Assembly: GCA_015066625.1 (NCBI GenBank)
Contig: SVOC01000019.1
Location: forward strand, 1-44,886
Direction of reading: 5' to 3'
DNA length: 44,886 nucleotides
From: Oscillospiraceae bacterium
Lineage (GTDB): Bacteria; Bacillota; Clostridia; Oscillospirales; Acutalibacteraceae
Part shown: positions 48-20,884 of the stretch, piece by piece
Layout: each line of letters opens with the position of its first letter
How positions within the stretch are numbered: the stretch's first letter is position 1
Translations under genes and position numbers: made by a program
Notes under the pieces: generated by a model
What the model was told of the DNA's origin: nothing
The model's input: the letters and a program-made list of their open reading frames with translations, nothing else
Database searches by the model: none

Positions 48-420
48 ATAGCCGACAATGTTATTGAACGGCTATGTAATAGACCGAAACCCATTCTTGG
101 CGAATCGGTCTTATGTTAAATGCAGTATTTGTCCTCGACACCCCTGCATAGCTTTTGCTTTATGGGAAACACATAGGTTACAGTTTGCTAAACCGTATCA
201 TAGGAATCTCACCTCTGCCGGGTACTCCGCCAGCTCCGTAGAGAAGTATCATTATCATTCTGACTGTCATCGCCATATCGGTTGCAATCCGATAATCGTG
301 CAGGGGTTATCGCTCTTTCCACTTTCGGAAATCAAGGCGTACCTGCTACCGTAGCTACTCATCAGAAATAAAGTCCTATGTGAGTGACTTATTCACTTTT
401 CAATGTTCGTGAAAGGCTTT
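48..420 (-). ncRNA. putative structured RNA / long structured 5' leader, with pseudoknot
   Basis: Several exact helices can be drawn: 48-54 with 69-75, 81-87 with 105-111, 180-186 with 190-196 (one G-U), 276-281 with 289-294, and 316-320 with 327-331. Two long-range helices also form: nine base pairs between 140-148 and 299-307, and eight base pairs with a two-base bulge between 221-231 and 336-343. These two cross, giving a pseudoknot. On the minus strand the last hairpin ends just before the Shine-Dalgarno of the gene starting at position 22, so the RNA would be that gene's leader or an RNA encoded immediately upstream. Known element-borne RNAs with this position include HEARO/omega RNAs before IscB-type genes, but I cannot match a class. 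Identity is unknown; the structure itself is seen. Confidence 0.45.
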
Positions 421-13956: not shown

Positions 13957-14496
13957 ATGGACAATTCAAAAAAACTATGGCAGATAGTAACCCTGCTTGC
14001 TGCAGACCTTGCACTGCTGGTTCTGATTTCACTGCTTTCTTCGCCGACGGCAGGGGCAATGCATATGGGTCACAGCGGCGAAAAGGTGGCGGTTATTCAG
14101 CAGAAGCTTTGCGAAAATAAATTTTATTCGGGAGAAATCAGCGGAAAATACAGCATGGAAACACGCTCTGCCGTTAAAAATTTTCAGGAGCATTCAGGGC
14201 TTGAATCAAGCGGCGAAACGGACTATGCAACAATAAGCGCAATGGGAATAAGTTCCCGTACTCACCTCTGCTTTACCGCCGAGGCAGAGCTTCTTGCAAG
14301 ATGTGTGCAGGAAAGCGGCAGTGTGGGATATCCTTCCATGCTGAAAGCCGCAGAAGAAATTTTAAGCAAAACAAAAGCCGCCCGTACTCTGGGCAGCTAT
14401 GTTTGTGAATATTATCCCGATGTTATCGATTCTCCCGAGCCTTCGCCTGAGGCATACACCGCAGCCTTGCATGCATTACTAAACAGATATTTGTAA
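13957..14496 (+). CDS. membrane-anchored peptidoglycan-binding protein, degenerate SleB-like
   Basis: 179 residues: N-terminal membrane span (about 8-28), peptidoglycan-binding type 1 domain (37-95: HSGEKVAVIQQKLCENKFYSGEISGKYSMETRSAVKNFQ), then a C-terminal part resembling the cortex lytic SleB/CwlJ domain (LLARCVQESGSVGYPSMLKAAEEIL against LLARxVxGEARGExYxGQVAVAAVxL). The ARGE element and the downstream NR motif of active enzymes are missing, though a Glu (E119) remains, so hydrolytic activity is doubtful. It could be a cortex-binding regulator of germination (inference). GGAGTGAT precedes the ATG. Divergent from sigH. Confidence 0.72.
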   Translation: MDNSKKLWQIVTLLAADLALLVLISLLSSPTAGAMHMGHSGEKVAVIQQKLCENKFYSGEISGKYSMETRSAVKNFQEHSGLESSGETDYATISAMGISSRTHLCFTAEAELLARCVQESGSVGYPSMLKAAEEILSKTKAARTLGSYVCEYYPDVIDSPEPSPEAYTAALHALLNRYL

Positions 14497-14504
14497 ATTA
14501 TTTG

Positions 14505-14532
14505 TTGAAAAAAGAAGAGTGCGTGATATAAT
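14505..14532 (+). promoter_or_regulatory. sigma-A promoter of the TIR-receptor gene
   Basis: TTGAAA (14505-14510), 16-base spacer, TATAAT (14527-14532), starting just after the stop of the previous gene. AAAGGATG and the ATG follow. Confidence 0.7.
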
Positions 14533-14554
14533 TAATCAAAAGGATGTGAAGAAA

Positions 14555-17500
14555 ATGGAAAATCCCGGTCAAAACACAAAATACAGATATTACGCATTCA
14601 TAAGCTACAACCAAAAAGACCAGAAATGGGCAAAATGGCTTCAAAATCAGATTGAAAGCTATCGCTTGCCCACAAAAATCAGAAAATCCCAAATCGGCAT
14701 TCCCAAAAAGTTGTCGCCCGTTTTCCGTGATAAAACCGACCTTTCCGGAACAGTGCTTCAGGAAGCACTGCATAAAGAACTGGAAAGCAGTCGGTATCTT
14801 ATAGTAATCTGCTCTCCCAACAGCAACCAATCGGAGTGGGTAAACAAAGAAATCAAGCATTTTTGTTCCTTGGGAAGAGAAAAACAGATAATTCCCTTTA
14901 TTGTGGACGGTGTTCCTTTCTCAGACGACCCTGAAAAAGAATGTTTTCCCGAAGCGTTAAGAGAAATCACCCCCGAGCTTTTAGGAATAGATGTTAATGA
15001 ATTCGGAAGAAAGGATTCTTTTCTCCGTGTTATTTCAACTATGCTTGATATCCGTTATGACGATATTGCTTTGCGTGACAAAAAACGCCGCAACCGCCAA
15101 CGCGCCGCATTGGCAGCCTGCCTTGTCGCACTGACGGTTGCTTGCAGTCAATATATATGGTATAACACCGAACACAGCAAATATTATAAGTCGGTTGTAT
15201 ACCGCAACGAAATCCCCGAAGGAATTCACGAGGTTTCAAGCAAGCAAAAAGAATCCATGAATACGGTTTACAAAATAACACGTCTGCGCGGAAAAACCGT
15301 GCGGTTGGAGTGTGTAAACTCCTGTGATGTTCCCACGGATCCGTCTTTTACGGCCTCTGAACCCGACAGCCCATGGATAACATACACCTATAATGACTCA
15401 GGAGATTTGAGTTTTTCAAATGTATACGATACCTACGGAGTACTCAAATACACAAAAATATTCAAACATAACAAAGCCACTTATGAAATTGCGGTTGAAT
15501 ATCAAAGCACCGGAAATATGACCACTGCATCTGCACTTTCATCAAACTTCACATTTACAGGCAAAGATTCCGATGATTCAAAAAGTGAAATTACAAGACT
15601 CAACAATACATACAACGAAGACGGGCTTCTGATTAAATCCATGTATTGCAGGGATAACCTTTCCACTCCCGCCTGTGACAGCAGCGGCTCCTTTGGTGCT
15701 TCATTCGAATATGACAATCTGGGCAGAATCGTTCGTGTAAACGCTCTCGACGAAAAAGGCAATATACACAACTGTAAATACGGGTATTCGTCACAGATTT
15801 TGACCTATGATTCAGACGGTAATTTTATATCCGTGCGTTACCTTAATGCCAATGGAAACAAGGTTCGAAACGAACAATGTGCAAATTATATATTACTCAC
15901 ACTCAACAGCCGATGCAATGTGGCTGCCTTCAGTGTATTCGACGAAAACGATAACCCATGCAATTTAAAACTCGGATATTCTTCCCAAACTCTCGAATAC
16001 GACGAAAACGGCAATATAATATCCACCAAATTCTTTGACAACAAGGGAAATCCCGCATATGACAATACAGATTTCTGTCATGAAAAACGATATGAATATG
16101 ACGAAAACGGAAGAATAATAAAATTTTCTTCATTTGATGCCGATTCCTCTCCGATATATCTCAAATCTCTCGGCTTTTCTTCTGTGGAAAAAAAGCTGGA
16201 CGAAAAAGGTCGTATAATTGAGGAACGTTATTTTGACCATCAAGGTAAACCCGTGTGTAACATTTCAGGTGGCTATTATGCGATAACTTTTAAATACGAT
16301 AAAAACGGCTACCTGTGCGAGGAACACTATTGGGATGCAGACGGCAACCCAACCACTTGTAAAAACGGCTATACCTCTGTAATTGAGACACACAACCAAA
16401 ACGGTCAACCCACAAAACTTGAATTCCGTGACAAAAACAATGCCCTTTGTATGTCCACAGACAACTTTGCAATTATGGAAATGACCTACGACTCATTCGG
16501 CAACAACACAGAAATCCTTCATTTCGACGAAAAAGGCAACCCATGTATGGCCAGCGGATATTATCATAAAATAGTCCGGACTTACGAAGGCGGAAAACTC
16601 ATTTCAGAAGAATTATATGACACAGAAGGAAAGCCTGTGATCAGCAACGACGGTTCATTCGGGCACAAAAACGAGTACGACGAAAAAGGAAATTGCATAA
16701 GAACAACCTATTATGATACTCTGGGCAAACCGACAATGGATATTAACTATTACGCCGTTGTTGAATATGATTATGATGAATACGGAAATGTAATTGAAAA
16801 AAGATATTTCAACTCAGCTATGAAGCCCACAGAAACTTCCGGTTATTATAAGATAATATACGGATATGACAACCGCAACAACTGTATCAGAGAAGAACGC
16901 TTTTCTTTTGCACCGCAATCGCTCGACTATAATGTTATTGAATATGAATACGATTCTTATGATAATAACACCGTTATCAGATACTACAAAGACGGCAAAC
17001 CTGCAGATGATTTGGAACACGGCTCCCGTATAACCAAAGAATTCAATGCATTGGGACTAATAACCGAAGCAAAAAGCTTCTCATCAGACGGAAAGCTCTT
17101 TGCACAGGGAATGATTGCGGAAGGAAAATATAACATAATCAGGTACAACTATGATTCGGCGGGCAACGTAACCACAACTCAATATTTGAATCAAAAATCA
17201 GATAAAACAGAGGTTCTTTTAAAGGAAGAGCTCAGATATTATGATGCATACGGAAACTGTATAAAAGAAGCAGTAAAAACAAACAACGCTGTTTCTGACA
17301 ACGCATTCCACGATTGGTCGTGTGTTCTGAAACAAGAATATTCTCCCGAAGGATATTTAACAGCGATACAATACTATGACCAAAACGAACAGCCTATCTT
17401 ACGAAACGGAACATTCCGATTGGAATACGCTTATGATCCTGTTGGAAATATTACGGAAATCCGGCGTTACGGATTGGATTTAAAGCCGATCAAAGCTTAC

Positions 17501-18022
17501 GACGGTTATGTGGCAAAAGTTGTTTTTGAATATGATGACAGAGGTAACAGGAAAAAAGTCTCCAACTTTGACGAAAACGGAAAACTTTATGCCAACGAAC
17601 TTTATCCTGCAAGCATCACAGAAACAGTAACCGACATACAAGGAATTGAAGTTCAGAGAAAATATTATGATGAAAACGAAAAACTTTTGCTCCATATGCG
17701 TTCTCTGGCTGTAATCGAAAGTGCCAGCACCGCTTTCGGCAAGGAATACTTCTTGCCCGAAGACATAATAATTTCATATAATCAGTGGAATTTCTTTGAA
17801 AACGATCCGCTGTCACCGTTTGACGGATTCGCAGCAGCAATAGCAGAAGGAAACTACACAGAAAAAAATATTGTTATCTGTCGTCAGGATCCGACTACGG
17901 GTTACATTGATATTTTAGAATTCAATTTATCTGAAGGTGATCTTGGTTTAAACACTTCTTTTGATTTGTATACGCAAAACGATGTGGAATACCTTGAAGA
18001 AGTCTACAACGAATGTAAATAA
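14555..18022 (+). CDS. TIR domain - transmembrane - YD/RHS-like repeat receptor
   Basis: 1155 residues. TIR domain at 10-150: YYAFISYNQKD (strand A) and SRYLIVICSPNSNQSEWVNKEI with W95-x3-E99, the WxxxE typical of bacterial TIRs, whose Glu is catalytic in NAD-cleaving members. A basic stretch (RDKKRRNRQR, 175-183) precedes one membrane span (184-203), so the TIR domain should be cytosolic. The remaining 950 residues, predicted outside, are about 20-30 imperfect repeats with YDENGN / YFDxxGKP units, like YD/RHS repeats. ATG 14555 follows AAAGGATG; an upstream in-frame ATG has no Shine-Dalgarno. The gene has its own promoter and looks AT-richer than its neighbours, suggesting transfer. NADase activity and ligand sensing are inference. 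Confidence 0.82.
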   Translation: MENPGQNTKYRYYAFISYNQKDQKWAKWLQNQIESYRLPTKIRKSQIGIPKKLSPVFRDKTDLSGTVLQEALHKELESSRYLIVICSPNSNQSEWVNKEIKHFCSLGREKQIIPFIVDGVPFSDDPEKECFPEALREITPELLGIDVNEFGRKDSFLRVISTMLDIRYDDIALRDKKRRNRQRAALAACLVALTVACSQYIWYNTEHSKYYKSVVYRNEIPEGIHEVSSKQKESMNTVYKITRLRGKTVRLECVNSCDVPTDPSFTASEPDSPWITYTYNDSGDLSFSNVYDTYGVLKYTKIFKHNKATYEIAVEYQSTGNMTTASALSSNFTFTGKDSDDSKSEITRLNNTYNEDGLLIKSMYCRDNLSTPACDSSGSFGASFEYDNLGRIVRVNALDEKGNIHNCKYGYSSQILTYDSDGNFISVRYLNANGNKVRNEQCANYILLTLNSRCNVAAFSVFDENDNPCNLKLGYSSQTLEYDENGNIISTKFFDNKGNPAYDNTDFCHEKRYEYDENGRIIKFSSFDADSSPIYLKSLGFSSVEKKLDEKGRIIEERYFDHQGKPVCNISGGYYAITFKYDKNGYLCEEHYWDADGNPTTCKNGYTSVIETHNQNGQPTKLEFRDKNNALCMSTDNFAIMEMTYDSFGNNTEILHFDEKGNPCMASGYYHKIVRTYEGGKLISEELYDTEGKPVISNDGSFGHKNEYDEKGNCIRTTYYDTLGKPTMDINYYAVVEYDYDEYGNVIEKRYFNSAMKPTETSGYYKIIYGYDNRNNCIREERFSFAPQSLDYNVIEYEYDSYDNNTVIRYYKDGKPADDLEHGSRITKEFNALGLITEAKSFSSDGKLFAQGMIAEGKYNIIRYNYDSAGNVTTTQYLNQKSDKTEVLLKEELRYYDAYGNCIKEAVKTNNAVSDNAFHDWSCVLKQEYSPEGYLTAIQYYDQNEQPILRNGTFRLEYAYDPVGNITEIRRYGLDLKPIKAYDGYVAKVVFEYDDRGNRKKVSNFDENGKLYANELYPASITETVTDIQGIEVQRKYYDENEKLLLHMRSLAVIESASTAFGKEYFLPEDIIISYNQWNFFENDPLSPFDGFAAAIAEGNYTEKNIVICRQDPTTGYIDILEFNLSEGDLGLNTSFDLYTQNDVEYLEEVYNECK

Positions 18023-18035
18023 CCTTTAACCAACA

Positions 18036-18343
18036 AAAACCGCCCCAAGGGCGACCCTTCATAAGGAATTTAAGCCTTAAAAAGGCTATTTTGGTATATA
18101 ACTGCGTTGAAAATGCTCGGAATCCGTCAAGGATTCCTGTGCTTTTCGCCTTGTTCTATATCCAAACTATCTCTTTTTAAGGTGCAAAGCAGTTTTTATC
18201 AGGTTATTTTTCGTTCAGACAAAATGACAAAAATCCCGTAATACTTGATGTATTACGGGATTTTTTCGTGAAGTATTAACGGAAAAGAATCGATAAAAAC
18301 CTTAACTTCCTTGTGAAGGGTCGCCCAAGGGGCGGTTTTTGTT
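18036..18343. terminator. convergent-gene terminator split by MITE insertion
   Basis: The left half (AAAAACCGC before 18044) and right half (GCGGTTTTT after 18331) would together form one strong hairpin, AAAAACCGCCCC-AA-GGGGCGGTTTTT, if the insert and one target copy were removed. Plus-strand termination is now probably provided by the MITE's own hairpin at 18230-18264, followed by six Ts. Confidence 0.7.
18052..18323. mobile_element. MITE, 272 bp, with 23-bp terminal inverted repeats and 8-bp target duplication
   Basis: The terminal inverted repeats 18052-18074 and 18301-18323 match at 21 of 23 positions, starting CGACCCTTCA. The direct repeat CCCAAGGG flanks both ends (18044-18051 and 18324-18331). 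Inside are a long imperfect hairpin (CCTTAAAAAG 18075-18084 with CTTTTTAAGG 18173-18182, apex GGAATCC/GGATTCC at 18119-18137) and a perfect 15-pair hairpin at 18230-18264. No coding frame is present. An 8-bp duplication fits families such as IS66, ISL3 or IS6/IS256; the parent transposase is not in the window. Confidence 0.82.
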
Positions 18344-19496
18344 ATCTGCAAAGCTCTTCAGCAAGGGCTTCAAGCTGAGCGATATTTTCTTCGTTGACGG
18401 CGGATTTAATGTGAACGCCTGCTTCTGTGTATGTTATATCCTTGCTCTTTTCAAGCATTTTTCTCATAAACTTTTCAGCCATAAGCCCCCAGGTGCCGTT
18501 TTCGATAAAGCCTACGGTGCGCTTCTGATAGTTGCGCTCCGTAAGGTGCTTTAAGAATTCGTGCATAAAGGGAAAGATTTCGCCGTTGTAGGTTGTTGTT
18601 GCAAGAACCTGCTTGCCGTAGCGGAAGGCATCCTCAACCGCCTCAGCCATATCACAGCGTGCAAGGTCATTGACAACGACCTTGGGGCAGCCCTTTTCGC
18701 GGAGCTTTTCCGCAAGAATTTCAACAGCCTTTTTGGTGTTGCCGTAAACGGAGGTGTATGAAATAAGCACGCCTTCGCTTTCAACACCGTAGGATGACCA
18801 TATGTCATAAAGATTAATGTAATAACCGAGATTTTCGCTGAGTACGGGACCGTGAAGAGGACAGATAATCGCAATATCAAGGCCTGCCGCTTTTTTCAGA
18901 ACGGGCTGAACCTGAGGACCGTATTTGCCTACAATCCCGAAATAATAACGTCTTGCCTCGCAAGCCCAATCCTCGTCTGCATCAAGGGCACCGAATTTTC
19001 CGAAAGCATCTGCGGAGAAAAGCACCTTATCCTTGCTGTCATAGCTCATGATAACCTCGGGCCAGTGCACCATGGGTGCGGTTACAAAGTTAAGAGTATG
19101 TGCACCAAGCTCAAGCTGACTGCCTTCGCCCACAACAACCTGTCTGTCAGCAAAATCATTGCCGTAAAACTGCTTCATCATCGTGAACGCTTTGGTTGAT
19201 GAAACAATTTTTGCATCGGGGTAAGTTTCAGCAAAAAGCAGAATGTTGGCGGAATGGTCGGGCTCCATATGCTGAACAACAAGATAATCGGGAGCTTTGT
19301 CGCCGATAACCCCTTTAAGATTATTCAGCCACTCATCGCCGAAACGGGCATCCACCGTATCCATAACCGCAATTTTTTCATCGGTTATAACATATGAGTT
19401 ATATGCCATACCGTTTTCAACAACATACTGACCCTCAAAAAGGTCAACCTCTCTGTCATTGACACCTATATATCTGACATCTTCCGTAATTTTCAT
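18342..19496 (-). CDS. fprA: flavodiiron protein (FprA-type A-type flavoprotein)
   Basis: 384 residues. The metallo-beta-lactamase-like domain has the diiron ligands H76-x-E78-x-D80-H81, H144 and D163, plus the later HGP histidine. A C-terminal flavodoxin domain (from about 250, ISYTSVYGNTKKAVEILA) binds FMN. The family reduces O2 to water or NO to N2O in anaerobes, accepting electrons from rubredoxin or similar carriers. No extra rubredoxin module is fused. ATG 19496 is preferred over an upstream in-frame start because AAGGAGAAG is spaced from it correctly. Stands alone, 32 bases after the symporter gene. Confidence 0.92.
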   Translation of the reverse strand: MKITEDVRYIGVNDREVDLFEGQYVVENGMAYNSYVITDEKIAVMDTVDARFGDEWLNNLKGVIGDKAPDYLVVQHMEPDHSANILLFAETYPDAKIVSSTKAFTMMKQFYGNDFADRQVVVGEGSQLELGAHTLNFVTAPMVHWPEVIMSYDSKDKVLFSADAFGKFGALDADEDWACEARRYYFGIVGKYGPQVQPVLKKAAGLDIAIICPLHGPVLSENLGYYINLYDIWSSYGVESEGVLISYTSVYGNTKKAVEILAEKLREKGCPKVVVNDLARCDMAEAVEDAFRYGKQVLATTTYNGEIFPFMHEFLKHLTERNYQKRTVGFIENGTWGLMAEKFMRKMLEKSKDITYTEAGVHIKSAVNEENIAQLEALAEELCR

Positions 19497-19528
19497 AAAT
19501 CTTCTCCTTGACTTTGATATACGGTTCA

Positions 19529-20884
19529 TTATAACACAGATACCTTACTTTTTACAATAGATTTTCGGGTAAATACATTATTTTTCAGCTCATTTGTCGC
19601 CTCTTTCGAAAGCATCAGCAAAGCAAAAATATTGGGCACAGCCATAAGCCCGTTAAGGGTATCGGAAAGGCTCCACACGCTTTCAAGCTGTGTAACACTG
19701 CCTGCAAAGGCACAGACGATATATATTATGTTGTATACCTTACCGCTTTTTTCACCGAAAAGATATTCCGCGCCGCTTTTGCCGTAATACGACCATGCCG
19801 TAAGGGTTGCAAAAGCAAAAAGGCATATGCAGATGTTAAGGAAATATCCTCCTGCCCTGCCAAATACACTTTCAAACACTGCGGCACAAAGCGCCGCACC
19901 GTTAAGGTCTGTATCGGGCGACCACACTCCGCTTGTGAGAATGGCGGCGGCGGTTACGGTACACATAAGCACGGTATCAATGAACACCTCAAGAATTCCC
20001 CACTGACCCTGACGGGCAGGATTATCGCAATCTGCAGCGGCATGAATCACCGCACTGCTGCCAAGCCCCGCTTCATTTGAAAAAACTCCCCTCGATATTC
20101 CGTATCTTGCCGCCTTTGCCATTCCGTAGCCCGAAACCGCTTTGACGGTAAATGCCTCTTTTACGATGTATTTAAGGCTCGATAAAAGATCTTCAGCATT
20201 TTTGCCGATTATTATAAAGCAGGCGAGAATAAACACAGCCGACAGAACAGGTATCAGCTTTTCGGATATTGCCGAAATTCTTTTAAGCCCGCCCGAAACG
20301 GAAAAACCTGCAAGCACCGCAAGAATCAGACCTGCCGCAACGGGCGGCACTCCGAAGCCCGAAAGCCCCTGAGAAACGGAATTTGCCTGAGTCATATTTC
20401 CCATTCCCAAAGATGCACCGGTGAGAAAAACGGCATATGCACCTGCAAGCCACTTTATTCCCACACCCCGTTCAATATACTGCATAGGTCCGCCCCGCCA
20501 CTGCCCGTCGGCACCCGTCACTCTGTATTTCACTCCCAGAATGTTTTCACAGCAGCAGGTCATCATACCCAGCACCGCAGATACGCACATCCAGAAAACC
20601 GCACCGGGACCTCCCGAACAAAGTGCGGTGGCAACTCCCACAATATTTCCCGTTCCAAGGCAGGCGGCAAGAGCCGTTGTCAGCGCACTCATCTGCGAAA
20701 CGGAGCCTTTGTCTTTTTTGAATTTGGACTTTGAAAATATGGTTGACCCCAGCCAATCGCCTATGCCGAAAATCTGATAAAATCCCGTTTTTACAGAAAG
20801 AAAAAGCCCCGTGCCCAGAAAAACCGCCAGCATAGGCACTCCCCAGACAAAGGAACTTATTGCAGAATTAACCGTATAAAACAA
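19529..20884 (-). CDS. alanine/glycine:Na+ symporter (AGCS family)
   Basis: 451 residues, about ten membrane spans. Family segments are SALTTALAACLGTGNIVGVATAL, GGPGAVFWM, GGPMQYIERG, ISRGVFSNEAGLGSSAVIHAAA and LTAWSYYGKSGAEYLFG. It imports alanine or glycine with Na+ (or H+). The start is TTG at 20884: the family N-terminus (INSFVWGVPMLAVFLGTGLFL) needs the residues before the first ATG. The only Shine-Dalgarno, GAGGTGA, lies inside the 3' arm of the preceding terminator hairpin. fprA follows within 35 bases. Confidence 0.9.
   Translation of the reverse strand: MFYTVNSAISSFVWGVPMLAVFLGTGLFLSVKTGFYQIFGIGDWLGSTIFSKSKFKKDKGSVSQMSALTTALAACLGTGNIVGVATALCSGGPGAVFWMCVSAVLGMMTCCCENILGVKYRVTGADGQWRGGPMQYIERGVGIKWLAGAYAVFLTGASLGMGNMTQANSVSQGLSGFGVPPVAAGLILAVLAGFSVSGGLKRISAISEKLIPVLSAVFILACFIIIGKNAEDLLSSLKYIVKEAFTVKAVSGYGMAKAARYGISRGVFSNEAGLGSSAVIHAAADCDNPARQGQWGILEVFIDTVLMCTVTAAAILTSGVWSPDTDLNGAALCAAVFESVFGRAGGYFLNICICLFAFATLTAWSYYGKSGAEYLFGEKSGKVYNIIYIVCAFAGSVTQLESVWSLSDTLNGLMAVPNIFALLMLSKEATNELKNNVFTRKSIVKSKVSVL

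What the first reader, a model, noticed from the sequence alone, without database searches (positions are those of the whole stretch)
14555..18022. Toll-receptor-like architecture: cytosolic TIR, one TM, large YD/RHS-like repeat ectodomain
A WxxxE-bearing TIR domain (W95, E99) sits on the predicted cytosolic side (basic RDKKRRNRQR before the span), while some 950 residues of YDxxGN/YFDxxGKP repeats lie outside. Bacterial TIR domains are usually fused to cytosolic sensors or stand alone, and this inverted, surface-sensing layout would couple an outside signal (phage, toxin or wall fragment) to NAD cleavage. The gene has its own promoter, looks AT-richer than neighbours, and its terminator was hit by a MITE, consistent with mobile defence cargo. 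Function is inference.
Basis: partly seen in the sequence, partly recalled or inferred. Interest (0 to 1): 0.78.

Follow-up and report, generated by a model that had tools for sequence, protein, structure and literature searches.

The report
Membrane TIR receptor with repeat ectodomain
A Clostridia-class genome carries a recently gained gene for a receptor-shaped protein, with an immune-type TIR domain predicted inside the cell and a long repeat arm predicted outside; related genes often sit beside genes for proteins that may respond to the TIR signal, some of them predicted ion channels, although no such partner was found in this genome.

Summary
Window 14555-18022 (+) encodes 1155 aa: TIR (TIR_2, E 1.1e-14), a basic stretch, one hydrophobic helix (184-202), then about 950 residues with 22 YDxxG-type motifs (shuffled mean 0.8). 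E99 is invariant in 34 of 34 aligned rows; W95 is not.

The gene is a recent gain: 1 of 45 genus genomes; five of eight relatives examined keep both flanking genes as neighbours without it. A 282-bp MITE splits its terminator.

The layout is not unique. A TIR-TM chassis carries YD, WD40, PQQ, Sel1 or short ectodomains, and the YD label changes at least 5 times on the TIR tree. New here: RyR-domain ORFs lie near TIR genes in 31 of 72 loci (grown profile; 19 of 72 with the first, single-seed profile), some on K+ channel-like proteins. Four ADPR-contacting residues of phage RyDEP are kept together in 46 of 60 rows.

Proposed: outside cue, TIR-made nucleotide, RyR protein response. No RyR was found in this genome. 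Activity, ligand and defence role are inference.

The parts
14505..14532 (+). predicted sigma-70 promoter TTGAAA-N16-TATAAT (11/12, extended TG)
   Evidence: consensus match only
14555..18022 (+). TIR-TM-YD repeat protein, 1155 aa
14597..14914 (+). TIR domain (residues 15-120); candidate catalytic Glu is E99
   Evidence: E99 invariant in 34 of 34 aligned rows
15074..15103 (+). basic juxtamembrane stretch RDKKRRNRQR (residues 174-183)
   Evidence: sequence
15104..15160 (+). predicted transmembrane signal anchor (residues 184-202)
   Evidence: KD 1.73, the only strong peak
15161..15400 (+). juxtamembrane region, predicted extracytoplasmic, with the Y..Y..(F/W)G(I/V)PEGI-type motif shared with other YD-type members
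   Evidence: end point approximate
15611..17587 (+). YD/RHS-like repeat array (motif hits at residues 353-1005)
17720..18019 (+). non-repeat C-terminal region (about residues 1056-1155), PDZ-like by eye only, no Pfam hit
   Evidence: the motif test found a PDZ-like motif in 1 of 33 other YD proteins
18035..18046 (+). left half of the split terminator stem (AAAAACCGCCCC)
   Evidence: sequence
18047..18328 (.). MITE, about 282 bp with inverted ends; three further copies in the genome
18329..18340 (+). right half of the split terminator stem (GGGGCGGTTTTT)
   Evidence: sequence
14497..18341 (.). whole inserted block, absent in the closest relative between the PG-binding gene (13957-14496) and the ODP-flavodoxin gene (18342-19529)

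Best explanation
It is a single-pass, signal-anchored TIR receptor gained recently as single-gene cargo. The N-terminal TIR is cytosolic, and the YD-repeat arm with its C-terminal cap lies outside and senses something at the cell surface. Sensing would bring TIR domains together so that they cleave NAD+ (inferred). In many relatives the product is probably an ADPR-type nucleotide read by neighbouring RyR-domain proteins, some of which carry K+ channel or TrkA_N modules, giving outside signal, nucleotide, then ion flux or growth arrest (inferred). In this genome no RyR partner was found, so here it either works alone by depleting NAD+ or talks to an effector not identified. Shown by computation: architecture, charge asymmetry, conserved Glu, recent gain, ectodomain swapping, RyR linkage in relatives and RyR ligand-residue conservation. 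Not shown: enzymatic activity, ligand, channel gating, defence.
For: TIR and YD repeats; TM and charge (62 of 71 scored family proteins more basic before the span than after). YD-repeat proteins with a lipobox-like motif, L079 and L080. E99 invariant 34 of 34; TIR profile matches TLR2, TLR1/6, AbTIR and SARM1 chains at E 2e-5 to 8e-3. TIR-TM-YD proteins in six other genomes and 29 parsed proteins with at least 4 YD motifs loci (five of the six genomes recur there). YD against not-YD needs 9 changes on the TIR tree, at least 5 forced by well supported branches. RyR ORF in 31 of 72 loci with a parsed TIR gene, 21 of 39 with at least 5 kb on both sides; 19 of 72 with the first, single-seed profile. 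Of 49 RyR ORFs 46 are on the TIR strand, median gap 1.7 kb. Of 11 such proteins scanned by Pfam, 7 pass the RyR cut-off, two of these with Ion_trans_2 and two with TrkA_N. TIR matches and RyR co-occur in 17 genomes of 391 (40 TIR, 28 RyR; odds ratio 23, p 4e-12; by genus 10 of 221, with 17 TIR and 20 RyR genera, p 4e-8). RyDEP ligand residues H75, W78, H100 and D117 are all kept in 46 of 60 RyR rows that span them. Recent gain.
Against: No RyR domain was found in the own genome by Pfam model, by one relative or by the TM-RyR profile (that profile missed 2 of the 6 other genomes searched), so the channel step is not supported for this gene. Of 72 loci 41 show no RyR ORF, including 15 of 32 YD loci and the closest relatives L081 and L082 in the short stretches held. 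Four of 11 RyR-called proteins scanned do not reach the Pfam RyR cut-off and three of them match no Pfam family, so part of the count rests on the grown profile. G047 has a TIR-TM protein but no Pfam RyR. PADLOC finds no consistent defence partner among 80 neighbours. No homologue in phage records or viral contigs. Many contigs are short and limit neighbourhood reading.
Confidence: 0.5

Rival explanations
1. Lone abortive-infection NADase: the ectodomain senses phage adsorption or envelope damage and the TIR depletes NAD+ by itself, with no second messenger.
For: Orphan gene with a predicted own promoter, gained recently; no RyR found in the genome.
Against: Many relatives have RyR genes nearby, which suggests signalling; no data on NAD+ consumption.
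Confidence: 0.27
2. Cell-wall or envelope sensor with a regulatory, non-immune role: the YD arm binds wall glycan and the TIR acts as an adaptor or mild signal source.
For: YD repeats also occur on membrane proteins and lipobox-bearing proteins in relatives (L075, L076, L077, L079, L080); the gene sits next to a peptidoglycan-binding protein gene.
Against: Sporadic, recently gained, repeated ectodomain switching; the peptidoglycan-binding neighbour is present at the site without the TIR gene.
Confidence: 0.15
3. Degenerate or exported RHS/YD-type polymorphic protein in which the TIR is the cargo.
For: YD repeats above curated cut-offs.
Against: TIR is N-terminal before a basic-flanked anchor; no RHS core or C-terminal toxin model hit; the aligned relatives have the same order.
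Confidence: 0.05

Closest known systems
Toll-like receptors / IL-1 receptors (animals)
   Same: Cytosolic TIR, one span, large repeat or modular ectodomain; TLR1, 2 and 6 TIRs are matched by the family profile.
   Different: TIR is N-terminal (signal anchor), ectodomain is YD repeats instead of LRR or Ig; possibly an enzyme rather than an adaptor; no evidence of shared descent of the architecture.
Thoeris ThsB (TIR second-messenger producer)
   Same: TIR matches Pfam ThsB_TIR above cut-off; proposed NAD-derived messenger.
   Different: Predicted membrane receptor with ectodomain; no ThsA recognised among the 17 window proteins scanned; the recurrent neighbours of relatives are RyR-domain proteins.
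RyDEP, phage RyR-domain protein (PMC13232231, 2026 preprint; outline with abstract, passages and section 4 seen)
   Same: Same Pfam family PF02026; the four ligand residues are conserved with the same spacing in RyR domains near TIR-TM genes.
   Different: RyDEP is a phage protein that destroys or sequesters 2'/3'cADPR; here RyR domains are bacterial and often on proteins with membrane segments, so sensing is the likelier role, although small stand-alone RyR proteins near TIR genes could act on the signal instead.
RHS/YD-repeat proteins
   Same: YD repeats above curated cut-offs.
   Different: No RHS core or C-terminal toxin model hit; a TIR and signal anchor precede the repeats.

Membership tests
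TIR domain superfamily (TIR_2) | Pfam match above gathering score | tested here: met
   55.4 bits against 28
Catalytic (NADase) bacterial TIR | Glu at the WxxxE position (its catalytic role in other TIRs is recalled) | tested here: met
   E99 invariant in 34 of 34 rows and aligned with a Glu in the TIR chains whose alignments were shown; W95 not conserved
Catalytic (NADase) bacterial TIR | NAD+ hydrolase or cyclase activity | not testable with these tools
   needs purified protein
Toll-like receptor architecture | cytosolic TIR, single span, extracellular sensor | tested here: inconclusive
   supported by hydropathy, positive-inside charge and lipobox-bearing YD proteins; no structure or topology experiment
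Toll-like receptor family | LRR ectodomain N-terminal to the span, TIR C-terminal | tested here: not met
   no LRR hit in the Pfam scan; TIR is N-terminal
Thoeris | adjacent ThsA-type effector | tested here: inconclusive
   17 window proteins scanned include none, but not every window ORF was scanned and ThsA was not sought genome-wide
TIR-TM / RyR group described here | TIR-TM chassis | tested here: met
TIR-TM / RyR group described here | RyR-domain partner in the genome | tested here: not met
   none found in the own genome; the same Pfam search found RyR in 7 of 10 genomes, including 6 of 6 other YD-type ones; profile A4 also none
RHS/YD polymorphic toxin | RHS core and C-terminal toxin domain | tested here: not met
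   no such model in the Pfam or NCBIfam scans at E up to 1

The most novel reading that the evidence does not exclude
Bacteria have a widespread class of true cell-surface TIR receptors: a constant TIR-TM chassis with swapped ectodomains reads outside cues and makes an ADPR-type messenger that gates RyR-domain proteins, among them K+ channels and TrkA_N-type membrane proteins, a prokaryotic parallel to both Toll receptors and cADPR-linked ryanodine receptor channels. The window gene is an orphan YD-repeat member gained as single-gene cargo.
Probability: 0.4. Interest if true: 0.92.

Novelty: new variant of a known kind. Interest (0 to 1): 0.7.

Why it matters
Almost all studied bacterial TIR immunity starts from cues inside the cell (recalled). 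A receptor-shaped family that would sense outside and signal through nucleotides to RyR-domain proteins makes two open questions testable: whether bacteria have Toll-like surface immunity, and what prokaryotic RyR domains read. The linked genes in relatives give natural sets for the test.

Tried and rejected
The ectodomain profile against the PDB gave only weak matches to coronavirus spike chains (E 0.03 or worse), read as chance. Phage and viral-contig searches found no homologue; plasmids gave nine records matched in the TIR part and one weak repeat match. A first genome-contig scan with the single protein found nothing; the alignment query found 79 loci (best 80 of 123 kept).

Considered and rejected: RHS toxin; Thoeris membership; defence-island membership as a rule (scattered PADLOC hits only); peptidoglycan-binding neighbour as a dedicated partner (present at the site without the TIR gene). 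PDZ-like C-terminal cap: L096 by a motif and L014 by Pfam below its cut-off; the window protein is undecided.

Rows dropped or weak: 7 of 79 loci gave no parsed TIR gene and are outside the 72, although two of them, L139 and L140, have RyR. Five contig-end proteins were dropped from the second tree and L158_9905 was relabelled from YD to WD40; before that cleaning YD needed 12 changes. The trees label YD at 2 or more motifs. The 32 YD loci still include L158. The RyR profile was grown over four rounds from one seed, because my pattern picked one seed only; weak members (L108, E 3e-4) may be drift, and the 60 rows include some loci held twice. Of 165 neighbours within 5 kb, 112 were listed and 80 passed to PADLOC and Pfam. 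The 32 left out were picked by hand; 16 of them overlap RyR ORFs, and two RyR-called proteins (L089, L108) were passed. The PADLOC table shows 25 of 36 families.
Full report
WHAT IS THERE. Window 14555-18022 (+) is an open frame of 1155 codons and a stop. Residues 15-120 are a TIR domain (PF13676, E 1.1e-14; ThsB_TIR E 1.4e-10). The only strong hydrophobic peak is residues 184-202 (KD mean 1.73; next elsewhere 1.02), directly after RDKKRRNRQR. After it come about 950 residues that match RHS_repeat and YD_repeat_2x above the curated cut-offs and hold 22 YDxxG-type motifs against 0.83 in shuffles. The gene has a promoter match at 14505-14532 and 38-41% GC against 43-49% in the bins around it; both ends of the window are also low.

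TOPOLOGY. Charge asymmetry predicts N-terminus in, repeats out; 62 of 71 scored family proteins are more basic before the span than after, 9 are not. Only 2 of those 71 (identical proteins of one MAG, with a second TIR-TM unit) have another strong hydrophobic stretch later. Independent support: YD repeats occur behind lipobox-like motifs in two other proteins (L079, L080) and after membrane segments in L075, L076 and L077 (read by eye). Structure prediction was off, so this remains a sequence-level inference.

RECENT GAIN. The protein is found in 1 of 45 genus genomes, whereas the neighbouring ODP-flavodoxin gene is found in 43 of 45. Of eight such regions fetched, five keep the peptidoglycan-binding and ODP genes as direct neighbours with no TIR match between them, including G025, whose ODP protein is 96% identical and where the two genes nearly touch; in the other three the peptidoglycan-binding gene was not found beside ODP. 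The inserted block is 14497-18341. It ends in a 282-bp MITE with inverted ends; three more copies lie elsewhere in the genome, 95-97% identical over the aligned part. No integrase was recognised among the 17 window proteins scanned.

A FAMILY, NOT A ONE-OFF. The search matched 6 of 299 family genomes, 15 of 394 order genomes and 41 of 391 class genomes (own genome counted; the family and order counts include repeat-only hits; 40 of the 41 class genomes have a hit on the TIR part). Six other genomes have TIR-TM-YD proteins with the same juxtamembrane motif. In 72 of these loci 79 TIR proteins were parsed; 72 of the 79 have a hydrophobic 19-mer of at least 1.4 after the TIR, and 29 have at least four YD motifs. 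Other ectodomains examined by Pfam are WD40 (L119), PQQ (L012), Sel1 (L115) and short unassigned (L130). On the TIR tree the YD label needs 9 changes, at least 5 forced by well supported branches, so ectodomains have been swapped or lost repeatedly. E99 is invariant in 34 of 34 aligned rows; W95 varies. The profile reaches TLR, AbTIR and SARM1 chains at E 2e-5 to 8e-3.

RyR PARTNERS IN RELATIVES. Clustering of 377 ORFs from 31 YD loci gave one non-TIR family in more than three loci; it is in 11. Pfam identifies RyR (PF02026) in members, together with Ion_trans_2, TrkA_N, papain-like (C39) or cyclase domains; of 11 RyR-called proteins scanned, 7 pass the RyR cut-off, and 4 (three membrane proteins without any Pfam family, and L092) do not. 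A first profile from one seed finds RyR ORFs in 19 of the 72 loci; the grown profile finds them in 31 of 72, and in 21 of 39 with at least 5 kb on both sides. Of 49 such ORFs 46 are on the TIR strand, 14 lie within 100 bp and 30 within 2 kb. Eight carry a TVGYGD-like K+ selectivity motif, and 32 of 49 have predicted membrane segments. An independent Pfam search shows RyR in 6 of 6 other YD-type genomes, next to the TIR gene in four (G101, G594, G626, G1041) and on other contigs in two (G418, G803), and next to a TIR-TM gene with another ectodomain in G230; G047 (TIR-TM-PQQ), G685 and the own genome have none. Across 391 class genomes TIR and RyR co-occur in 17 (40 TIR, 28 RyR), odds ratio 23; by genus 10 of 221 (17 TIR genera, 20 RyR genera). 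Genera are not fully independent, so the p values are indicative; 23 TIR genomes have no Pfam RyR and 11 RyR genomes no TIR match. RyR density in that class (34 hits in 391 genomes, roughly 1 per 28 Mb by my estimate from about 2.4 Mb per genome) would give about 0.04 in the 1.16 Mb searched; other phyla were not measured.

WHY RyR MATTERS. A 2026 preprint (PMC13232231; outline with abstract, passages and section 4 seen) shows a phage RyR-domain protein that binds and cleaves 2'/3'cADPR; H75, W78, H100 and D117 contact the ligand. In the RyR domains near TIR genes these positions, at the same spacing, are H in 61 of 65 rows, W in 60, H in 54 and D in 53; all four together in 46 of 60 rows that span them. 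This makes ADPR-type ligand binding plausible, not proven. Passages of PMC9092222 list ADPR, cADPR or variant cADPR as products of TIR_2-labelled domains of gut bacteria, which supports, but does not show, an enzymatic TIR here.

THE ORPHAN PROBLEM. The own genome (97.7% complete) shows no RyR by Pfam, by one relative or by a ten-sequence profile (it detected 4 of the 6 other genomes searched). The closest relatives L081 and L082 also show none in the short stretches held (ORFs listed). So for this gene the channel step is not supported, and lone NAD+ depletion or an unknown effector remains open.

LITERATURE. Ten searches listed no title or abstract describing bacterial TIR receptors with swapped ectodomains or TIR-TM/RyR pairs; some lists were capped (25 of 3,419, 20 of 406, 20 of 27). 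The library lacks most subscription papers. Two likely relevant works were not held: Burroughs 2015 (NAR; recalled) and a 2025 preprint on TIR systems cited in PMC13232231. PMC7075850 (passages) reports diverse bacterial TIR architectures; in the passages shown, transmembrane receptors are named only for animals. Passages of PMC8195603 and PMC7159879 describe other conflict systems with variable, sometimes extracellular, domains, a precedent for swapped sensors.

VERDICT. The architecture and recent gain are solid at sequence level; the receptor reading is well supported; the TIR-to-RyR pathway is a strong hypothesis for the family and not supported for this gene.

Noticed in passing
window 198-255 (-): pemK RNA motif (RF02913, 69.9 bits, gathering 34.8).
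   Followed up: no
L016 8913-10076 (own genome C9): A second, shorter TIR protein (388 aa frame) with a basic stretch, a hydrophobic stretch and a small C-terminal domain; neighbours look like housekeeping genes by eye.
   Followed up: partly
L090, L096, L135: Cluster of M48 peptidase, a small protein and a zinc-ribbon protein recurring beside TIR-TM and RyR genes.
   Followed up: partly
L075 8832-11219 (-), L076 6049-10191 (+): Proteins with several hydrophobic segments that end in YD repeats, without TIR.
   Followed up: no
L082, L085, L090, L092, L096, L097, L098, L099, L135, L158: Several TIR-family genes in tandem or close together, some with different ectodomains.
   Followed up: partly
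L092 17390-20806: One protein with membrane segments, a RyR-like segment (grown profile only), a papain-like peptidase and a Lectin_like domain, directly after two TIR-TM-YD genes.
   Followed up: no
L144: The record is titled Bordetella parapertussis, but it is a MAG and its TIR groups with a Verrucomicrobiota protein in the tree; the label may be wrong.
   Followed up: no
window 18047-18328: MITE family with three further copies in the genome.
   Followed up: partly
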